From assembly GCF_000189275.1 (NCBI RefSeq), contig NZ_AEVT01000106.1, positions 1-64,000 of the forward strand: a stretch of DNA of 64,000 nt. Reading direction: 5' to 3'. The DNA is from Vibrio sinaloensis DSM 21326 (lineage in GTDB: Bacteria > Pseudomonadota > Gammaproteobacteria > Enterobacterales > Vibrionaceae). Each line of letters begins with the position of its first letter. The stretch's first letter is position 1. The position numbers and the translations under genes were made by a program. This document shows positions 39,786 through 46,702 of this stretch, piece after piece. The notes under the pieces were generated by a model. The model ran no database searches and was not told the DNA's origin. It saw only the letters and a program-made list of their open reading frames with translations.

Positions 39786-41909
39786 CTACTCATAAAAAGG
39801 CTTATCCAAGCCAGCACGAGTAAGTAGACCATCGCAAGGAGCAAAACGATCACCGTACTTCTCAGCATGTTCGTTCATAATTTCGACCAGTTTCTTCACT
39901 CCAATTTGGTCCATATAACGGAAAGGACCACCTAAGAATGGAGGGAAACCAATACCAAAAATTGCACCTATATCACCATCACGAGGGCTACGAATAATGC
40001 CTTCATCTAAACAGCGAACGGCCTCATTCAACATTGGTAACACACAACGCATCGCCATGTCTTGTTGAGCCATCTTAGATTCAGGGCTCAAGCCAAGTAA
40101 CTTATACACTGACTTGTCGACCTCTTTTTTCTTACCTTTGTAAGTGTAAAAGCCTTTACCACTCTTACGCCCTTTTCGGCCATCGTTCAGCAACGTATCG
40201 AACACATCAGGCCCTTGGAAACGCTCTCCTAACTCGTTGACCAAAATCGGCATGATTTTCGCGCCGATATCCACACCAACTTCATCAAGCAAAGTGATAG
40301 GTCCGACTGGGAAGCCAAAATTAAGCAATGCGTTATCTAGATGACCAATAGGTTCACCCGACATAAGAATCTGCGCGGATTCATTCATGTAAGGCGCTAA
40401 GATGCGGTTAACATAAAAACCTGCACTGTCTTTAACAACGATCGGCGTTTTACCTTGCTTACGAGCAAATTCAACCACGGTAGAGACAGCCTCTTCAGAG
40501 GTTCCTTCATGAGGAATCACCTCGACCAATGGCATTTTTTCTACTGGGCTGAAATAGTGCAGGCCAACCACGTTTTCTGGTCTTTTGGCTTTTTCGGCAA
40601 TTTGAGCGATTGGCAATGACGAGGTGTTAGTCGCAAAGATGGTGCTCTCTTTGGCATTCTCTTCAATATCAGCGACCATCGTTTGCTTCAGCTCTAGGTC
40701 TTCAAACACCGCTTCAATAACAATATCGGTGTGATTGAAATTAGTAAAATCAATGCCACCGGAGAGTTGTAACATCTTAGACTGTAACTGAGCTTTGCTG
40801 ATAATGCGGCGCTTACGCTGTGTTTCGAATAGCTTGTAGTTGTACTTCAGCGCATTTAACACGCCGTCGTTTGATACATCTTTGATGCGTACAGGCACTT
40901 TAGCTTTCGCGACACTGACGTGGCTAATACCAGCGCCCATTAACCCGCCTCCTAGCACAGCAGCACGTTTAACCTGTTTAGGATCCGCATCAGCGCCATT
41001 TTCTTTCTTCATTTCCGTAGTGGCGAAGAATATCGAGCGCAACGCTTTAGATTCTGGCGTCATGACCAATTCAGCAAAACGTTCGGCTTCTTTCTTCTGA
41101 CCTTTTTCAAAGCCTTTCTCGAGACCAAAACGAATTACTTCTAAAATCGCGTCCGCAGCAGGGTAATTGCCACGCGTCTTTTCATGGGTTTTCTTGGCTG
41201 CCTGTTCAAAAATCACTTTACGGCCAAGACCCGTATTGGCGATCAACTTTTCTTTTGTAGAAGCCTGACGCTTGGCTTTTTTCTTGCCCGAGTGTTTGTC
41301 GATCAAGCTCTTTGCGACATCAAGTAAAATGGTGTCAGGAACAACCGCATCAACGACGCCAAGTTTCTTGGCTTTTTTAGCTCTAAGCTGCTTACCCGTT
41401 AAGATAAGATCGAGAGACGGTAAAAGGCCAATTAAGCGAGGTAGACGTTGAGTACCACCCGAGCCCGGTAATAAGCCTAATTGGACTTCTGGCAGACCCA
41501 AACGCGTTTTGTCCGAATCGGTACAGACGCGATAATCACATGCCAACGCCAACTCAAGACCACCACCCAAACAAGGACCGTGGATCGCTGCCACTACGGG
41601 ATACGGCAGATCGGACAACTGCTGGAACATCTGTTGGCCTTTTTCAGCTAATGCTTGCGCTTCCGCCGTGGTGGTACAAGCGTCAAGCATACGAACATCC
41701 GCGCCCGCAACAAAATTGTCCGGTTTTAACGAGTGAACAATGAGCCCTTTTAGCGAAGATTTGTGCTCTTCTAAGTGAGTAAACACCTCTTCCATTTCTT
41801 CAGCAAAAGCAGCTTGCAAGGTGTTCATCTTTTCGCCTGGAACATCAATAGACAGCCAAGCAAGGTTATTTTCATCGATAATTAGATTAAATGCTTTTTG
41901 CTCGCTCAT
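39786..41909 (-). CDS. fadJ: Fatty-acid oxidation complex alpha subunit FadJ
   Basis: Multifunctional beta-oxidation enzyme of 707 residues. The N-terminal crotonase half (about 1-190) performs enoyl-CoA hydration and isomerisation, with oxyanion-hole segments [10 protein letters not shown] and [18 protein letters not shown]. The C-terminal half is 3-hydroxyacyl-CoA dehydrogenase, with NAD motif [14 protein letters not shown] and [15 protein letters not shown]. Order and sequence match FadJ, not FadB. Its ATG overlaps the fadI stop by one base (TAATG), so translation is coupled. Confidence 0.96.
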
Positions 41910-43216
41910 TACTCAACCTCCAAAATCATTGCCGCACCTAAACCACCAGCTGCACATGCAGTGTTCAACGCTAGTCCGCCGCCACGACGTTGCAGTTCGC
42001 GCAGTGTTTGAGTAATCATACGAGCCCCAGTTGCCGCAAATGGATGACCGTAGGCAATCGAACCACCTAACACATTGAATTTGTCCATGTCGATTTCACC
42101 AATCGCTTTAGATCGGCCAAGATGTTGCTGGGCAAAAGCATCGCTGGCAAACATCTTCACATTAGAGAGCGCCTGTGCTGCAAACGCTTCATGCATGTCG
42201 ATTAGTGTTAAGTCAGACAATTCAATTCCTGCACGTTCTAGTGCCATCGGCGTCGCATAAGATGGCCCCATCAACATGTCTTTTTCAACGCCAATAGCCG
42301 AGAAAGCATATGAGCGTATGTAGCCCATAATATCCAAGCCAAGTTCTTTGGCTTTGCCTTCACGCATCAACATGATTGCCGCTGCACCATCTGTGAGAGG
42401 CGTACTGTTTGCGGCTGTTACGCTGCCATACTGGCGGTCAAAGGCCGGACGCAACTTCGCGTAGCCTTCTAGTGTCGAGTCATGGCGAATATTATTGTCT
42501 TGAGAGATCCATTTTTTGTAAGGCTCTGGGAATGCTGTCATCACCTCGCCTTCAATTTTGCCTTCTTTCCAAGCTTGCGCAGCCAGAGTATGCGAGCGAT
42601 GAGCAAGTGCATCCTGCTCCTGGCGGCTAATGCCATGAGACTTCGCCATTTGCTCAGCCGTTTGGCCCATTGAAAGGCCCGTTGAATACTCTGCGACAGC
42701 CGGCGGAACGGGCATAAGGTCTTTAAGAGATAGGCTCTTTAGAATTTTAAGTTTTTGGCCTACTGTCTTGGTTTTGCTTAGTGCTAGCAGATTTGCTGCG
42801 AGCTTCTTAGAAACACCGATTGGTAAAACAGAGGACGAATCCGCACCGCCAGCAATACCCACATCGACAGTACCTGCCATAATGCTTTCTGCCACATTGA
42901 CGGCCGACTGGAAGCTCGTTGCGCAGGCTCTGGTTACGCTATACGCATCGGTATTAATGTCCATGCCTGTACCAAGAACAATTTCACGTGCGATATTCGG
43001 TGCTTCAGGCATTTGTACGACCTGACCAAACACAACTTGGTCAATCAACTTTGGATCGATCTCGGTTCTTGCCATCATTTCGCTGACGACCATTTTGCCT
43101 AAATCAACAGCTGGAACTTGACTAAATTCCGTACTTTGACGCGCAAAAGGGGTACGCAAACCAGCAACAATTGCGACACGCTCACCAGAGCGAGTTTTCA
43201 CTTCCTGCTTGCCCAT
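41909..43216 (-). CDS. fadI: Acetyl-CoA acyltransferase FadI
   Basis: Thiolase of 435 residues that removes acetyl-CoA in the last beta-oxidation step, partner of FadJ. The active-site Cys is in [14 protein letters not shown], with later thiolase segments [17 protein letters not shown] and a C-terminal [10 protein letters not shown] carrying the second Cys. ATG 43216 was chosen because AAGGAG lies six bases upstream; a longer in-frame start at 43249 sits over a FadR-like operator. E. coli FadI is about the same length. Confidence 0.96.
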
Positions 43217-43234
43217 TGTTTCTCCTTGGATAAT

Positions 43235-43251
43235 AAGAGGTCTGACCACGC
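43235..43251 (-). promoter_or_regulatory. FadR operator over fadI start point
   Basis: On the minus strand the 11-base core TGGTCAGACCT is identical to the consensus FadR site. It overlaps the predicted transcription start (about 43246) of the promoter at 43253-43280, so FadR would block fadIJ transcription when long-chain acyl-CoA is scarce. Confidence 0.75.
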
Positions 43252-43445: not shown

Positions 43446-43603
43446 AAAAAAAAACCACACAGAACTGTGTGGTCGGAATGTATAAAGCAATTAACTTACG
43501 CCAATTGAAATAATCAGTTTCCTGATTAGGAGAAAGTAAAGTCAGCCTTCAAAAGGAAGTGTCATCTTGCTCAACATGTCAGTGAAACACTGACTAGATG
43601 ACA
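43446..43603 (-). ncRNA. Candidate FnrS-like small RNA, about 158 nt
   Basis: No protein frame fits, but the minus strand folds into a chain of hairpins. The first has a 7-bp outer stem GTCATCT/AGATGAC and a perfect inner stem GTCAGTG/CACTGAC. Next is a short CCTT/AAGG hairpin, then a perfect 7-bp TAATCAG/CTGATTA stem with loop GAAA. It ends in a strong intrinsic terminator, CCACACAG/CTGTGTGG plus nine T. A -10 box (TATAGT) and a near-perfect FNR box are correctly spaced upstream. An unpaired ACTTCCTTTTGAA recalls a stretch of enterobacterial FnrS. Identity with FnrS is inference. Confidence 0.7.
43455..43472 (-). terminator. Terminator of the candidate sRNA
   Basis: CCACACAG/CTGTGTGG, 8-bp stem, followed on the minus strand by nine T (plus-strand A run at 43446-43454). 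The nearest coding gene upstream on this strand is many kilobases away, so it must end a non-coding transcript. Confidence 0.9.
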
Positions 43604-43609
43604 GGTGCT

Positions 43610-43650
43610 ACTATAACCGCTGTGCGGCAGTAGATTTTGAAATAGATCAA
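43610..43650 (-). promoter_or_regulatory. FNR-type promoter of the candidate sRNA
   Basis: On the minus strand, TTGATCTATTTCAA (43637-43650) matches nine of ten conserved bases of the FNR box TTGATN4ATCAA. A TATAGT -10 lies at 43610-43615. With a start near 43603 the box is centred at about -41, the position of class II FNR-activated promoters. No good -35 hexamer exists, which fits an activator-dependent promoter. Confidence 0.65.
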
Positions 43651-43840: not shown

Positions 43841-44404
43841 GTGTCGATACTCAATTTTTTTGGGAAGAAAAAGTCTGCTACCCCGGTCAACTCGGATATG
43901 GACAGACAAAGAAAATATGAAGCGCTCGTCAGAGCCTATCACAGAGACTTATACCGATATGCGTATTGGTTATGTAAAGATCCAACGGTTTCAGAGGACC
44001 TCGTTCAGGAAACCTGCTTGAGAGCTTGGAAGTCTCTCGACAGTTTACAAGACGAGAAGGCCGCTAAATCGTGGTTAATCACGATACTAAGGCGGGAAAA
44101 CGCCAGACGCTTTGAACGAAAACAGTTTGATCTGGTTGATATCGATGACCATGGCAATGATGCTAAAGTCAGCGACGATCCGCATCATCAAACCGAATGG
44201 ATTCAAGCACAAATTATGAAACTCGAGGTGGATTACCGAGAGCCGCTATTCCTTCAAGTTGTGGGAGGATTCAGTGGTGAGGAGATCAGTGAAATCCTTG
44301 GGCTAAACAAGAATACCGTCATGACTCGTCTATTTAGAGCACGCAATCAGCTCAAAGAGATGATCGACCCTGAAAATAATCAACGAGGACAGAATAATGG
44401 ATGA
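43841..44404 (+). CDS. ECF-type RNA polymerase sigma factor
   Basis: Alternative sigma factor of 187 residues. Region 2 (about 28-95) contains HRDLYRYAYWLCKDPTVSED and SWLITILRRE. Region 4 (about 125-178) holds the helix-turn-helix GEEISEILGLNKNTVMTRLF. The start is GTG 43841 with an excellent ribosome site (GGGAGG). Its stop overlaps the start of the DUF3379 gene by 8 bases, so the two are translationally coupled. That partner has a single membrane span, as expected of an anti-sigma factor. It is next to the fad genes and two fadL genes, but regulated targets are not shown. Confidence 0.9.
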   Translation: MSILNFFGKKKSATPVNSDMDRQRKYEALVRAYHRDLYRYAYWLCKDPTVSEDLVQETCLRAWKSLDSLQDEKAAKSWLITILRRENARRFERKQFDLVDIDDHGNDAKVSDDPHHQTEWIQAQIMKLEVDYREPLFLQVVGGFSGEEISEILGLNKNTVMTRLFRARNQLKEMIDPENNQRGQNNG

Positions 44405-45128
44405 TTTAGAATTTCGTCGCCGCATCATGTCCGATCCAAAGTTTCGGGATAGCGAATTAAACAGCGCGATTAAAAGCAGCGAAGCGAACTGCAAGTTTGC
44501 CGACGAAATCTTAGATTTAGACGCTCAGATCGCCAAAGCAATGAACGTTGATGTCCCTGAAGATTTGGCAGATAGAATTCTGTTTAATCAGACATCCAAT
44601 GCCCAAGAGGACAATGTTGTTAGGCCAAACTTTGCGCGCAGAGCGATGGCGATGGCTGCCTCGGTAGCGTTTGTCGCGGGTCTATTGGTCGGCCAAGTCA
44701 ATTGGGGCAATATCGTCGTACCTCCTGCACAAGCAAGTTTAGCGTCTACGGCTTTAGGCCATGTCGTTAATGAGAAGCCATTTATTGCCAATTTAGATGA
44801 ACAGGTACAATCTTCGCAGATCAACGCTAAGATGGCGCCATTTTCCCATAAGTTAAGCGCGCATTTCCCGTATCACGTTTATTATCTAAACCATTGCGGA
44901 TTTGGTAAATCTAACGCCCTACACATGGTGTTCCAAGGTGAAAAAGGCAAAGTAACTCTGTTTTTGACAGGGATTGCATCACCGGAAGCCTCAGACTTTG
45001 CCGAAGATGGCATGGTGGGTGTCGTTGAACCCATGGGTGATACCAGCATGATTCTAGTCGGAGATGACGGGGAAGATGTAGCGAAAATCGCCGAAAGTAT
45101 CGCAGATATTATAAAACCCATGAGTTAA
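44397..45128 (+). CDS. DUF3379 membrane protein, probable anti-sigma partner
   Basis: Protein of 243 residues of the DUF3379 family. The N-terminal cytoplasmic part (about 1-80) has MDDLEFRRRIMSDP; a single membrane span follows at about 83-105 (AMAMAASVAFVAGLLVG). The remaining periplasmic domain contains HYVYYLNHCGFGKS-like conserved residues. It overlaps the sigma-factor gene by 8 bases. Layout and topology suggest an anti-sigma or co-regulator; that function is inference. Confidence 0.8.
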   Translation: MDDLEFRRRIMSDPKFRDSELNSAIKSSEANCKFADEILDLDAQIAKAMNVDVPEDLADRILFNQTSNAQEDNVVRPNFARRAMAMAASVAFVAGLLVGQVNWGNIVVPPAQASLASTALGHVVNEKPFIANLDEQVQSSQINAKMAPFSHKLSAHFPYHVYYLNHCGFGKSNALHMVFQGEKGKVTLFLTGIASPEASDFAEDGMVGVVEPMGDTSMILVGDDGEDVAKIAESIADIIKPMS

Positions 45129-45394: not shown

Positions 45395-46702
45395 ATGAAC
45401 AAGACGCGTCTGTTTAAAAAATCACTTTTAGCAGTGACAATTACCACAGCAACTCTCGCTTCGCAGCAAGCTCTAGCTGCTGGCTTTCAATTAAACGCCC
45501 AATCAGCAACTGGTATCGGCCGTGCATTCGCCGGTGACGCAGTAATTGCAGACAACGCTTCAGTAATGGCGCGTAACCCTGCTGCAATGGCTCTGTTTGA
45601 CAAGACTGAACTGTCTCTTGGTTTCGAGAGCATTACTTCTATCATCGAAGTAAAAGATGCTTCTTACACTAGCGGCATGTACGTTCCAGCGAACGGTTCA
45701 GTCGTAGGTGCAACATCCCAGAACGCTGATGCAGACGGTATCGGCGACACGTCAATCGCACCAAACATTCACCTAATCGTACCGGTTAACGATAAGTTCG
45801 CTTGGGGTATTAACGCTTACTCTAACTTTGGTACTAAAACTGAATTTGAAGACGACTATGTTGCTGCGCAATTTGGTGGTTTAACAGACGTTAAAAGCTT
45901 TAACTTTGGCCTAGCCGCTTCATACCGTTATGACGAGCATTGGAGCATTGGTGCTGGTCTGGACTTGATTTATGGTCAAGGAACATTTAAGCGCGCCGTT
46001 CCTGGTACAAACAGCTCAGCTTACCTATTGAACGTAGATAAAGCGGATGGTTTTGCGTTTGGCTTTAACCTAGGTACGGTTTACGAGCTAGATGAAAACA
46101 ACCGCTTCGGACTGTCTTACCGCTACAGCCCTACGTTTACTGCGGAAGACGATGCAGATCAAAAAGTAACTCTACCTCTACCTGATATGGCTGAGTTCTC
46201 TGGTTACCACAGAATTAAAGAAACGCCTTTCGCTGTTCACTACAGCGTGCAATGGATTGGTTGGGGTGCATTCGAAACAATTGATTTCGAAAACCTAGAT
46301 CCGTCTGAGTCTGCTCTTGCTTCTGCAAGCACGACTTACAACAAAGATTACCAGTGGAAAGATGGCTGGCACTTTGCCCTAGGTGGTACTTACTACCTAA
46401 ACAACGATTGGGAACTTCGTGCAGGCTACATGTACGATACCAGTGCACAGGATGATCTAACTTCTATCTCTGTACCTGACTCTGATCGTCAGTGGCTATC
46501 AACAGGTTTAACCTTCCATATCGATAGCAGCTCTAGCATTGACTTCGGTATCACTTACTTGATGGGTAAAGAGACAGAAGTTAAAGAAACACTGATTCTG
46601 CCAAACTCGAGCCTACCAACAGGTTACGCGTATACAGAAGTGACGGGTACAACGCAAGCTGACGCAATCCTAGTCGGCCTTCAGTACAGCCGCAGCTTCT
46701 AA
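45395..46702 (+). CDS. fadL: FadL family long-chain fatty-acid transporter, copy 1
   Basis: Outer-membrane beta-barrel of 435 residues that admits long-chain fatty acids. Signal peptide about 1-28 (cut after ALAA). The mature start GFQLNAQSATGIGRAFAGDA and the NPAAM motif form the FadL hatch, and the barrel ends in LQYSRSF. Ribosome site AAGGA lies before the ATG. A weak FadR-like half-site TGGTCGGA lies about 100 bases upstream. It is followed by a second fadL copy, so the pair is a tandem duplication. Confidence 0.94.
   Translation: MNKTRLFKKSLLAVTITTATLASQQALAAGFQLNAQSATGIGRAFAGDAVIADNASVMARNPAAMALFDKTELSLGFESITSIIEVKDASYTSGMYVPANGSVVGATSQNADADGIGDTSIAPNIHLIVPVNDKFAWGINAYSNFGTKTEFEDDYVAAQFGGLTDVKSFNFGLAASYRYDEHWSIGAGLDLIYGQGTFKRAVPGTNSSAYLLNVDKADGFAFGFNLGTVYELDENNRFGLSYRYSPTFTAEDDADQKVTLPLPDMAEFSGYHRIKETPFAVHYSVQWIGWGAFETIDFENLDPSESALASASTTYNKDYQWKDGWHFALGGTYYLNNDWELRAGYMYDTSAQDDLTSISVPDSDRQWLSTGLTFHIDSSSSIDFGITYLMGKETEVKETLILPNSSLPTGYAYTEVTGTTQADAILVGLQYSRSF

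What the first reader, a model, noticed from the sequence alone, without database searches (positions are those of the whole stretch)
43446..43650. Candidate FNR-activated structured sRNA upstream of fadI
A minus-strand intrinsic terminator (8-bp stem plus nine T) stands in a 600-base gap with no coding gene feeding it. Upstream of it lie three further hairpins, a TATAGT -10, and a TTGATN4TTCAA element centred at about -41, the class II FNR position. The unpaired stretch ACTTCCTTTTGAA recalls the seed region of FnrS. The direct observations are the hairpins and boxes; the FNR control and FnrS kinship are inference. If right, it would be the Vibrio counterpart of the anaerobic sRNA, placed beside beta-oxidation genes.
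Basis: partly seen in the sequence, partly recalled or inferred. Interest (0 to 1): 0.82.

Follow-up and report, generated by a model that had tools for sequence, protein, structure and literature searches.

The report
Conserved Vibrio oxygen-linked small RNA
Beside fat-burning genes in Vibrio and its relatives lies a highly conserved small regulatory RNA, very probably the one known in the cholera bacterium as Vcr043, whose promoter looks built to be switched on by the oxygen sensor FNR, so it may do for this family what the unrelated RNA FnrS does for E. coli.

Summary
A ~157-nt RNA (43602..43446, minus) has an intrinsic terminator, a TATAGT -10 and a TTGATCTATTTCAA box; the inferred start puts the box at -41.5. 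Similar DNA occurs in 170 of 196 genus genomes; a covariance model finds it in 252 of 296 family genomes. The 5' double hairpin covaries. The box lies upstream in 202 of 212 loci, with a -10-like hexamer at one fixed distance in all 202. The genome encodes FNR.

By place, direction and size this is the family of V. cholerae Vcr043, an Hfq-linked sRNA with validated targets (grxA, vc0036, sdhC) that activates rpoS; no FNR or oxygen control is mentioned in the passages read. So the RNA is known; the FNR link is inferred and new to the papers I could search. FnrS ancestry is not supported: Rfam RF01796 fails, the alignment equals chance, neighbours differ, and the two RNAs occur in different bacterial families. 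It plausibly works like FnrS: CU-rich stretches pairing with ribosome sites of redox genes (grxA best supported). Not shown: FNR binding, oxygen response. Against: Vcr043 is present in LB throughout growth.

The parts
43446..43602 (-). sRNA gene (Vcr043 family by inference), about 157 nt, inferred 5' end G43602 to end of the T-run
   Evidence: fold z -3.70; covariation; 170 of 196 genus genomes by BLAST, 252 of 296 family genomes by covariance model
43637..43650 (-). FNR-type box TTGATCTATTTCAA, centred at -41.5 from the inferred start
   Evidence: only zero-mismatch site in the window; TTGATCTAnTTCAA in 70 of 70 loci; TTGATN4WTCAA in 202 of 212 loci; of the other 10, 9 keep TTGAT with changes in the right half and 1 is cut off (L203 read by eye)
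43610..43615 (-). -10 element TATAGT of the sRNA
   Evidence: -10-like hexamer starts 35 nt after the box start in 202 of 202 loci with the box
43561..43602 (-). 5' double hairpin (outer stem nt 1-7 with 36-42, inner stem nt 9-15 with 19-25)
   Evidence: fold; 9 of its 14 pairs have changes on both sides
43566..43575 (-). segment GUUGAGCAAG (nt 28-37) in the 5' structure, mostly unpaired or weakly paired; candidate pairing segment
   Evidence: all ten positions invariant in 59 sequences; complement UGCUCAA near the sdhC start in 19 of 29 genomes, near variants in 7 of 29, but also in 3 of 47 control starts
43551..43560 (-). CU-rich segment ACUUCCUUUU (nt 43-52), shared as a 10-mer with E. coli FnrS
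   Evidence: invariant in 59 sequences; 2.4% of shuffles share 10 or more with FnrS
43527..43538 (-). CU-rich segment UACUUUCUCCUA (nt 65-76), candidate anti-Shine-Dalgarno seed
   Evidence: inside a 37-nt run invariant in 59 sequences, which shrinks to 22 nt in the 33-row family alignment; complement at grxA and gor starts
43511..43528 (-). hairpin nt 75-92
   Evidence: fold; pairs almost invariant in the genus, so no covariation test
43488..43507 (-). hairpin nt 96-115
   Evidence: fold; pairs almost invariant in the genus
43446..43474 (-). intrinsic terminator, 9-pair stem and nine T
   Evidence: conserved with variable loop
43612..43617 (+). TATAAC on the opposite strand, overlapping the sRNA -10; candidate -10 of the divergent sigma gene, start about 43624-43626
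   Evidence: sequence; in V. cholerae the two starts are reported 25 bp apart with overlapping promoters (PMC8545128 passage)
43841..44404 (+). divergent ECF-type sigma factor gene (VC1045 counterpart by position)
   Evidence: NF009170 320.4 bits, cut-off 197; Sigma70_r2 and Sigma70_r4_2; opposite strand, upstream, in 176 of 212 loci
41909..43249 (-). fadI, downstream neighbour on the same strand; likely start ATG near 43216
   Evidence: TIGR02446 FadI; same strand and downstream in 202 of 212 loci

Best explanation
The element is a trans-acting, Hfq-type small RNA of the Vibrionaceae, the Vcr043 family. When oxygen falls, FNR binds the box at -41.5 and activates RNA polymerase at the TATAGT promoter; transcription ends about 157 nt later at the intrinsic terminator. 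The stable 5' double hairpin and the terminator protect the RNA, and the invariant CU-rich core between them pairs with ribosome-binding regions of mRNAs for aerobic and redox functions (grxA; probably sdhC and others), mostly to repress them, while it activates rpoS through its 5' UTR. Shown here: the gene, its structure, terminator, box and fixed geometry with their conservation, and the presence of FNR. Reported for V. cholerae Vcr043: expression, Hfq-dependent stability, RNase E maturation, targets. Inferred: that the window RNA is Vcr043, that FNR binds and activates, the oxygen response, the direction of effect on each target, and the pairing sites.
For: Conservation. Covariation: 10 of 42 pairs with changes on both sides against 6.7 (sd 1.0) in shuffles, 81 such cells against 22.2 (sd 3.4), and fewer in all six slid versions. 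Promoter: box in 202 of 212 loci, hexamer at the same distance in 202 of 202. FNR: own genome has a protein 88% identical to E. coli FNR, 468 bits, NF008365 509.9 bits, cut-off 228; the two ~1-Mb genomes tested lack both FNR and the RNA. E. coli fnrS has the same layout: a box centred 42.5 nt before the annotated 5' end. Identity with Vcr043: gene between VC1045 (sigma factor, opposite direction) and VC1046, about 160 nt (PMC8545128 passages); same order here, also in V. mimicus L168 and V. metoecus L180. Function: three of four validated targets, grxA, vc0036 and sdhC, have roles in electron transport (PMC9732341 passage); rpoS activated about 3-fold (PMC8545128). grxA pairing: AGGAGAAAG at 15 of 30 grxA starts, 0 of 47 control starts; energy -22.1, reached by 3 of 112 control starts.
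Against: No oxygen, FNR-mutant or binding data. [quoted passage not shown] Four genomes have FNR but no match to the RNA model (G040, G162, G183, G069), so FNR does not require the RNA. The right half-site is TTCAA, one base off the FNR consensus (recalled), and 9 loci deviate further. The sdhC and gor pairings are not exceptional by energy: 18 of 112 controls do as well, gor's own start being one of the 112. The covariation counts were made on the alignment that gave the structure, and related rows can beat shuffles without structure (note's tool). rpoS activation is not a property of FnrS that I recall. The V. cholerae sequence was not read here.
Confidence: 0.72

Rival explanations
1. The same sRNA, but the box is used by CRP or another CRP/FNR-family protein, or the promoter is mainly constitutive; oxygen is not the signal.
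For: CRP and FNR sites are related (recalled); Vcr043 is present in LB at all growth phases (PMC8545128); the own genome has a second, weaker match to the FNR query (23% identity).
Against: The left half TTGAT and the position fit FNR; the CRP core TGTGA/TCACA (recalled) is in none of the box types listed.
Confidence: 0.14
2. The element is a cis-acting leader or attenuator of fadIJ: transcripts start at this promoter and stop at, or read through, the terminator.
For: fadI lies downstream on the same strand in 202 of 212 loci; Vcr043 was once among 14 sRNAs that might also be 5' UTRs (PMC5089854 passage).
Against: Strong terminator about 200 bases before fadI; discrete ~160-nt RNA with Hfq-dependent stability and trans targets in V. 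cholerae. No alternative anti-terminator fold was searched for.
Confidence: 0.07
3. It is a true, strongly diverged orthologue of FnrS.
For: Shared promoter layout, and the 10-mer ACTTCCTTTT in a conserved stretch of both RNAs.
Against: RF01796 fails in the own genome; its 31 hits among 394 order genomes fall in families f19 (29) and f11 (2), none in f1; body alignment no better than shuffles; different neighbours. R2 found no alignable form outside the family: its one outside hit is the end of a protein gene with a terminator and no box.
Confidence: 0.05
4. It is a small mRNA for a peptide of about 11 residues (ATG or TTG ... GAA GGC TGA) overlapping the core.
For: The frame is open in the window and keeps register in 78 of 93 loci.
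Against: Register is broken by indels in 15 of 93 loci; the ATG is not conserved, though TTG is; codon third positions do not vary more than others, by eye.
Confidence: 0.02

Closest known systems
Vcr043 sRNA of Vibrio cholerae (VC1045-VC1046 intergenic)
   Same: Position between a divergent sigma-factor gene and the fadI side, direction opposite to the sigma gene, size about 160 nt
   Different: V. cholerae sequence not read here. FNR control is not mentioned where looked: 'fnr', 'anaerobic', 'oxygen' have no hit in PMC9732341; 'fnr' has none in PMC8545128 and its two 'anaerobic' hits are in the reference list
FnrS (Rfam RF01796) of Enterobacteriaceae
   Same: Class II FNR-type promoter layout, intrinsic terminator, ACTTCCTTTT in the stretch after the first hairpin
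   Different: No covariance-model match, no alignable body, different neighbours, different bacterial families
Qrr RNA (RF00378)
   Same: Weak whole-length hit at 16.3 bits, E 4.6
   Different: Far below the gathering score of 50; chance level
FarS of Vibrio cholerae (named in passing; properties recalled)
   Same: Vibrio sRNA linked to fatty-acid genes (recalled)
   Different: Made from the fabB 3' end (recalled); another locus

Membership tests
Vcr043 family | Gene between the VC1045-type sigma gene and the fadI side, transcribed opposite to the sigma gene | tested here: met
   against PMC8545128 passages; that VC1046 is fadI is recalled
Vcr043 family | Length about 160 nt | tested here: met
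   157 nt from inferred start to T-run; 155-167 nt in 70 loci
Vcr043 family | Start 25 bp from the sigma gene's start, promoters overlapping | tested here: inconclusive
   TATAAC at 43612-43617 (+) predicts a start at 43624-43626, 22-24 bp away; neither start is mapped
Vcr043 family | Sequence identity to V. cholerae Vcr043 | not tested
   V. cholerae record not read; V. mimicus and V. metoecus loci carry the core and neighbours
Vcr043 family | Hfq association and trans targets | not testable with these tools
   reported for V. cholerae
FnrS (RF01796) | Covariance-model match over the gathering score | tested here: not met
   the control E. coli rings
FnrS (RF01796) | Sequence homology of the RNA body | tested here: not met
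   score 72 against shuffled mean 70.2, sd 11.2
FnrS (RF01796) | Neighbourhood of E. coli fnrS, zntB and dbpA | tested here: not met
   fadI and sigma gene instead; neighbourhood of other FnrS copies not examined
FnrS (RF01796) | FNR-dependent anaerobic induction | not testable with these tools
   box and geometry present; response unknown
Class II FNR-dependent promoter | TTGATN4ATCAA-like box centred near -41.5 with a -10 element | tested here: met
   start inferred, right half one base off consensus
Class II FNR-dependent promoter | FNR encoded in the genome | tested here: met
Class II FNR-dependent promoter | FNR binding and activation | not testable with these tools
   needs experiment

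The most novel reading that the evidence does not exclude
The box is a two-way oxygen switch. The sRNA -10 (TATAGT) and the divergent sigma gene's -10 (TATAAC on the other strand) overlap, and the FNR site at -41.5 of the sRNA lies just downstream of the predicted sigma start. Without oxygen FNR would turn the sRNA on and at the same time block the ECF sigma / DUF3379 transcript; with oxygen the reverse. The sRNA would then lower glutaredoxin, glutathione reductase and succinate dehydrogenase and raise RpoS: an FnrS-like regulon that arose independently in the Vibrionaceae.
Probability: 0.25. Interest if true: 0.7.

Novelty: new member of a known kind. Interest (0 to 1): 0.55.

Why it matters
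Vcr043 was left as an uncharacterised regulator with electron-transport targets (PMC9732341 passage). A conserved FNR site would explain those targets and name the signal, so one simple experiment can test it. It would also suggest that two neighbouring bacterial families use unrelated RNAs for the same job, as the separate distributions hint, and would add a post-transcriptional layer to low-oxygen regulation in vibrios; a 2020 review calls the relevance of FNR/ArcBA for hypoxic metabolism in V. cholerae still unknown (PMC7212424 passage).

Tried and rejected
FnrS homology by model, alignment and neighbourhood: rejected. Rfam at permissive threshold: four hits, all far below gathering scores. 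Peptide reading: frame broken in 15 of 93 loci. Homologues outside the family: one marginal hit in 394 order genomes (G466, 35.8 bits, E 6.8e-4); read by eye it is the end of a protein gene followed by a terminator, with no core and no box: chance.

Target ranking by duplex energy. With 47 ORF starts of the window as controls, the count of controls as good as the own site was: nt 53-84, sdhC 3, grxA 0, gor 3; nt 41-84, sdhC 1, grxA 1, gor 7; nt 25-84, sdhC 4, grxA 4. With 112 own-genome starts chosen for a Shine-Dalgarno (nt 53-84): grxA 3, sdhC 18, gor 18, fadI 33. The second set is drawn from the window, L343 and the 60 loci fetched by the seed patterns, so it leans against the targets: it contains gor's own start, and of its four GGAGAAAG sites three are hits of the pattern (L376, L384 = gor, L396) and one is another site in such a locus (L381).

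Seed scans of the own genome are not enriched over the reversed pattern: 15 and 34 hits against 31 and 30; 33 and 29 against 35 and 26. gor was picked from the 62 hits, of which 30 were given as loci and 28 of these printed, because it sits at a start codon. gor starts: GGAGAAAG in 24 of 30 genomes, GGAGAAAGTA in 18 of 30. fadI starts also often read AAGGAGAAAC (46 of 70 loci could be read), so part of this is ordinary Shine-Dalgarno conservation.

Mended on re-check: the two loci that one search counted as lacking the hexamer were slicing faults of my script; the guarded recount gives 202 of 202.

Full report
WHAT IS THERE. On the minus strand, 43650 to 43446, the window holds in order a TTGATCTATTTCAA box, a TATAGT hexamer, a 5' double hairpin, an unpaired CU-rich stretch, two more hairpins and a terminator with nine T. 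The folded RNA is more stable than all 200 shuffles (z -3.70). The box is the only perfect TTGATNNNNWTCAA in 64 kb. No Rfam family reaches its gathering score anywhere in the window; near the element there are only chance-level hits.

CONSERVATION. The stretch 43440-43680 matches 170 of 196 genomes of the genus. In 70 of these loci the box reads TTGATCTAnTTCAA every time. A 59-row alignment shows a 37-nt invariant run (ACTTCCTTTTGAAGGCTGACTTTACTTTCTCCTAATC) and a variable but paired 5' hairpin. Ten of 42 pairs show changes on both sides. The structure exceeds all 500 shuffles on each of five measures and all six slid versions, with two cautions: it was derived from this alignment, and related rows can beat shuffles without structure. 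The inner helices 3 to 5 hardly vary, so covariation neither supports nor refutes them. A covariance model finds the RNA in 252 of 296 family genomes and 9 of 13 genera (strict filters). Of the 44 without a match 20 are listed; all 20 are of the same genus, 18 of them 3.4 to 4.5 Mb and two about 1 Mb. Divergent members keep the promoter and core while the 5' hairpin grows or shrinks. An order-wide search with a second model found 31 of 394 genomes, 30 in this family; the one outside is a chance match.

PROMOTER. Of 212 loci holding the core, 202 have TTGATN4WTCAA within 230 nt upstream, and in all 202 a -10-like hexamer begins 35 nt after the box begins. Of the other 10, 9 keep TTGAT with one or two changes in the right half, and one is cut off by the contig end. 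Conservation rises again at the base that I take as +1 (G43602), which puts the box at -41.5, the class II position. E. coli fnrS, read from its record, has a box of the same kind, centred 42.5 nt before its annotated 5' end. FNR is encoded in the window's genome. Of 11 genomes tested 9 encode FNR; the two without it are about 1 Mb and also lack the RNA, while four have FNR but no match to the RNA model.

NEIGHBOURS AND IDENTITY. Downstream on the same strand lie fadI and fadJ; divergently lie an ECF-type sigma factor, a DUF3379 protein and a FadL-like porin. fadI is downstream in 202 of 212 loci and the sigma gene upstream in 176 of 212, some loci being too short to show both. A published table places the V. 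cholerae sRNA Vcr043, about 160 nt, between VC1045 and VC1046; the text says that VC1045 encodes a sigma factor and is transcribed in the opposite direction, and that the two starts are 25 bp apart with partly overlapping promoters (PMC8545128 passages). On the window's plus strand TATAAC at 43612-43617 predicts a sigma start at 43624-43626, 22 to 24 bp from the sRNA start. V. mimicus and V. metoecus carry the same core and neighbours. I therefore identify the element with the Vcr043 family; this is inference from place, direction and size, since the V. cholerae sequence was not read.

WHAT IS REPORTED OF VCR043. Hfq-dependent stability (PMC5089854 passage); RNase E maturation and several stable forms (PMC7398697 passage); detection in LB at similar levels in all growth phases and about 3-fold activation of rpoS (PMC8545128 passages); four validated targets, of which grxA, vc0036 and sdhC have roles in electron transport (PMC9732341 passage). 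The direction of effect on each target was not in the passages. PMC9732341 has no hit for fnr, anaerobic or oxygen; PMC8545128 has none for fnr and its two hits for anaerobic are references. The six papers of the library that hold 'Vcr043' were each seen by passages only. Searches joining Vibrio, sRNA, FnrS, FNR, anaerobic or sdhC showed listings of 20 of 32, 25 of 38, 6 of 6, 20 of 98, 3 of 3, 15 of 40 and 20 of 49 papers; by title and abstract start none of those listed reports FNR control of this RNA. The unlisted ones were not seen, and subscription papers and preprints are not in that library. The paper that first described Vcr043 was not seen.

TARGET PAIRING. The segment UACUUUCUCCUA pairs with the ribosome site of grxA: AGGAGAAAG occurs at 15 of 30 grxA starts against 0 of 47 control starts, and the duplex energy of the own grxA (-22.1) is reached by 3 of 112 starts with a Shine-Dalgarno. 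A pattern scan of the own genome pointed to gor, glutathione-disulfide reductase (NF004776, 658 bits, cut-off 480); GGAGAAAG stands at 24 of 30 gor starts. But the scan as a whole is not enriched over the reversed pattern, and by energy gor and sdhC are ordinary (18 of 112 each). GUUGAGCAAG in the 5' structure is complementary to UGCUCAA near the sdhC start in 19 of 29 genomes, yet 3 of 47 controls have it as well. So grxA is well supported, gor is a suggestion, and the sdhC site is unresolved.

RELATION TO FNRS. RF01796 finds FnrS in 31 of 394 order genomes, 29 in family f19 and 2 in f11 (these two below the gathering score), none in this family; no genome was positive for both RF01796 and R2 in the two searches. 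The RNA bodies do not align beyond shuffles; the shared 10-mer alone is of borderline weight. Hence not an FnrS, but plausibly the thing that does a similar job here.

VERDICT. A real, strongly conserved sRNA, very probably one already catalogued in V. cholerae, whose FNR control is predicted here from a conserved promoter. The FNR link is the new and testable part.

Noticed in passing
window 45395-46702 and about 47030 onward, +: Two FadL-like porin genes stand in tandem after the sigma/DUF3379 pair; the first by Pfam, the second by eye.
   Followed up: no
window 44397-45128, +: The DUF3379 protein after the sigma gene has a weak anti-sigma match (NF052375, 20.1 bits, cut-off 100); it may be the sigma factor's partner.
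   Followed up: no
L376 (own genome C47:5580-5595): TTAGGAGAAAGTA directly before the start of a DNA-3-methyladenine glycosylase I gene (TIGR00624, 226.4 bits, just under the cut-off of 232.5) gives 13 perfect pairs with the sRNA core. Conservation not tested.
   Followed up: partly
L283-L311, sdhC starts: The sRNA segment GUUGAGCAAG resembles GUGAGCAAG in many sdhC starts, which could pair with the same UGCUCA upstream; the sRNA may copy one arm of an sdhC leader hairpin. A fold of part of the own leader did not show that hairpin.
   Followed up: partly
L115-L128: Members outside Vibrio have a longer 5' hairpin (or a short one, L126 and L127), and several carry an extra conserved stretch GATTGCTTTCC before the terminator.
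   Followed up: no
L130, L132: Two of the lowest-scoring members keep the box, a -10 and a terminator while the core has decayed, so the promoter may outlast the RNA.
   Followed up: no
G026 and G124, about 1 Mb each: Two tiny genomes of the genus lack both FNR and this RNA.
   Followed up: partly
window, whole: TTGATN4WTCAA with up to one mismatch occurs 29 times against 14.3 expected; near-palindromes are counted on both strands, in the shuffles too, so the excess is not explained.
   Followed up: no
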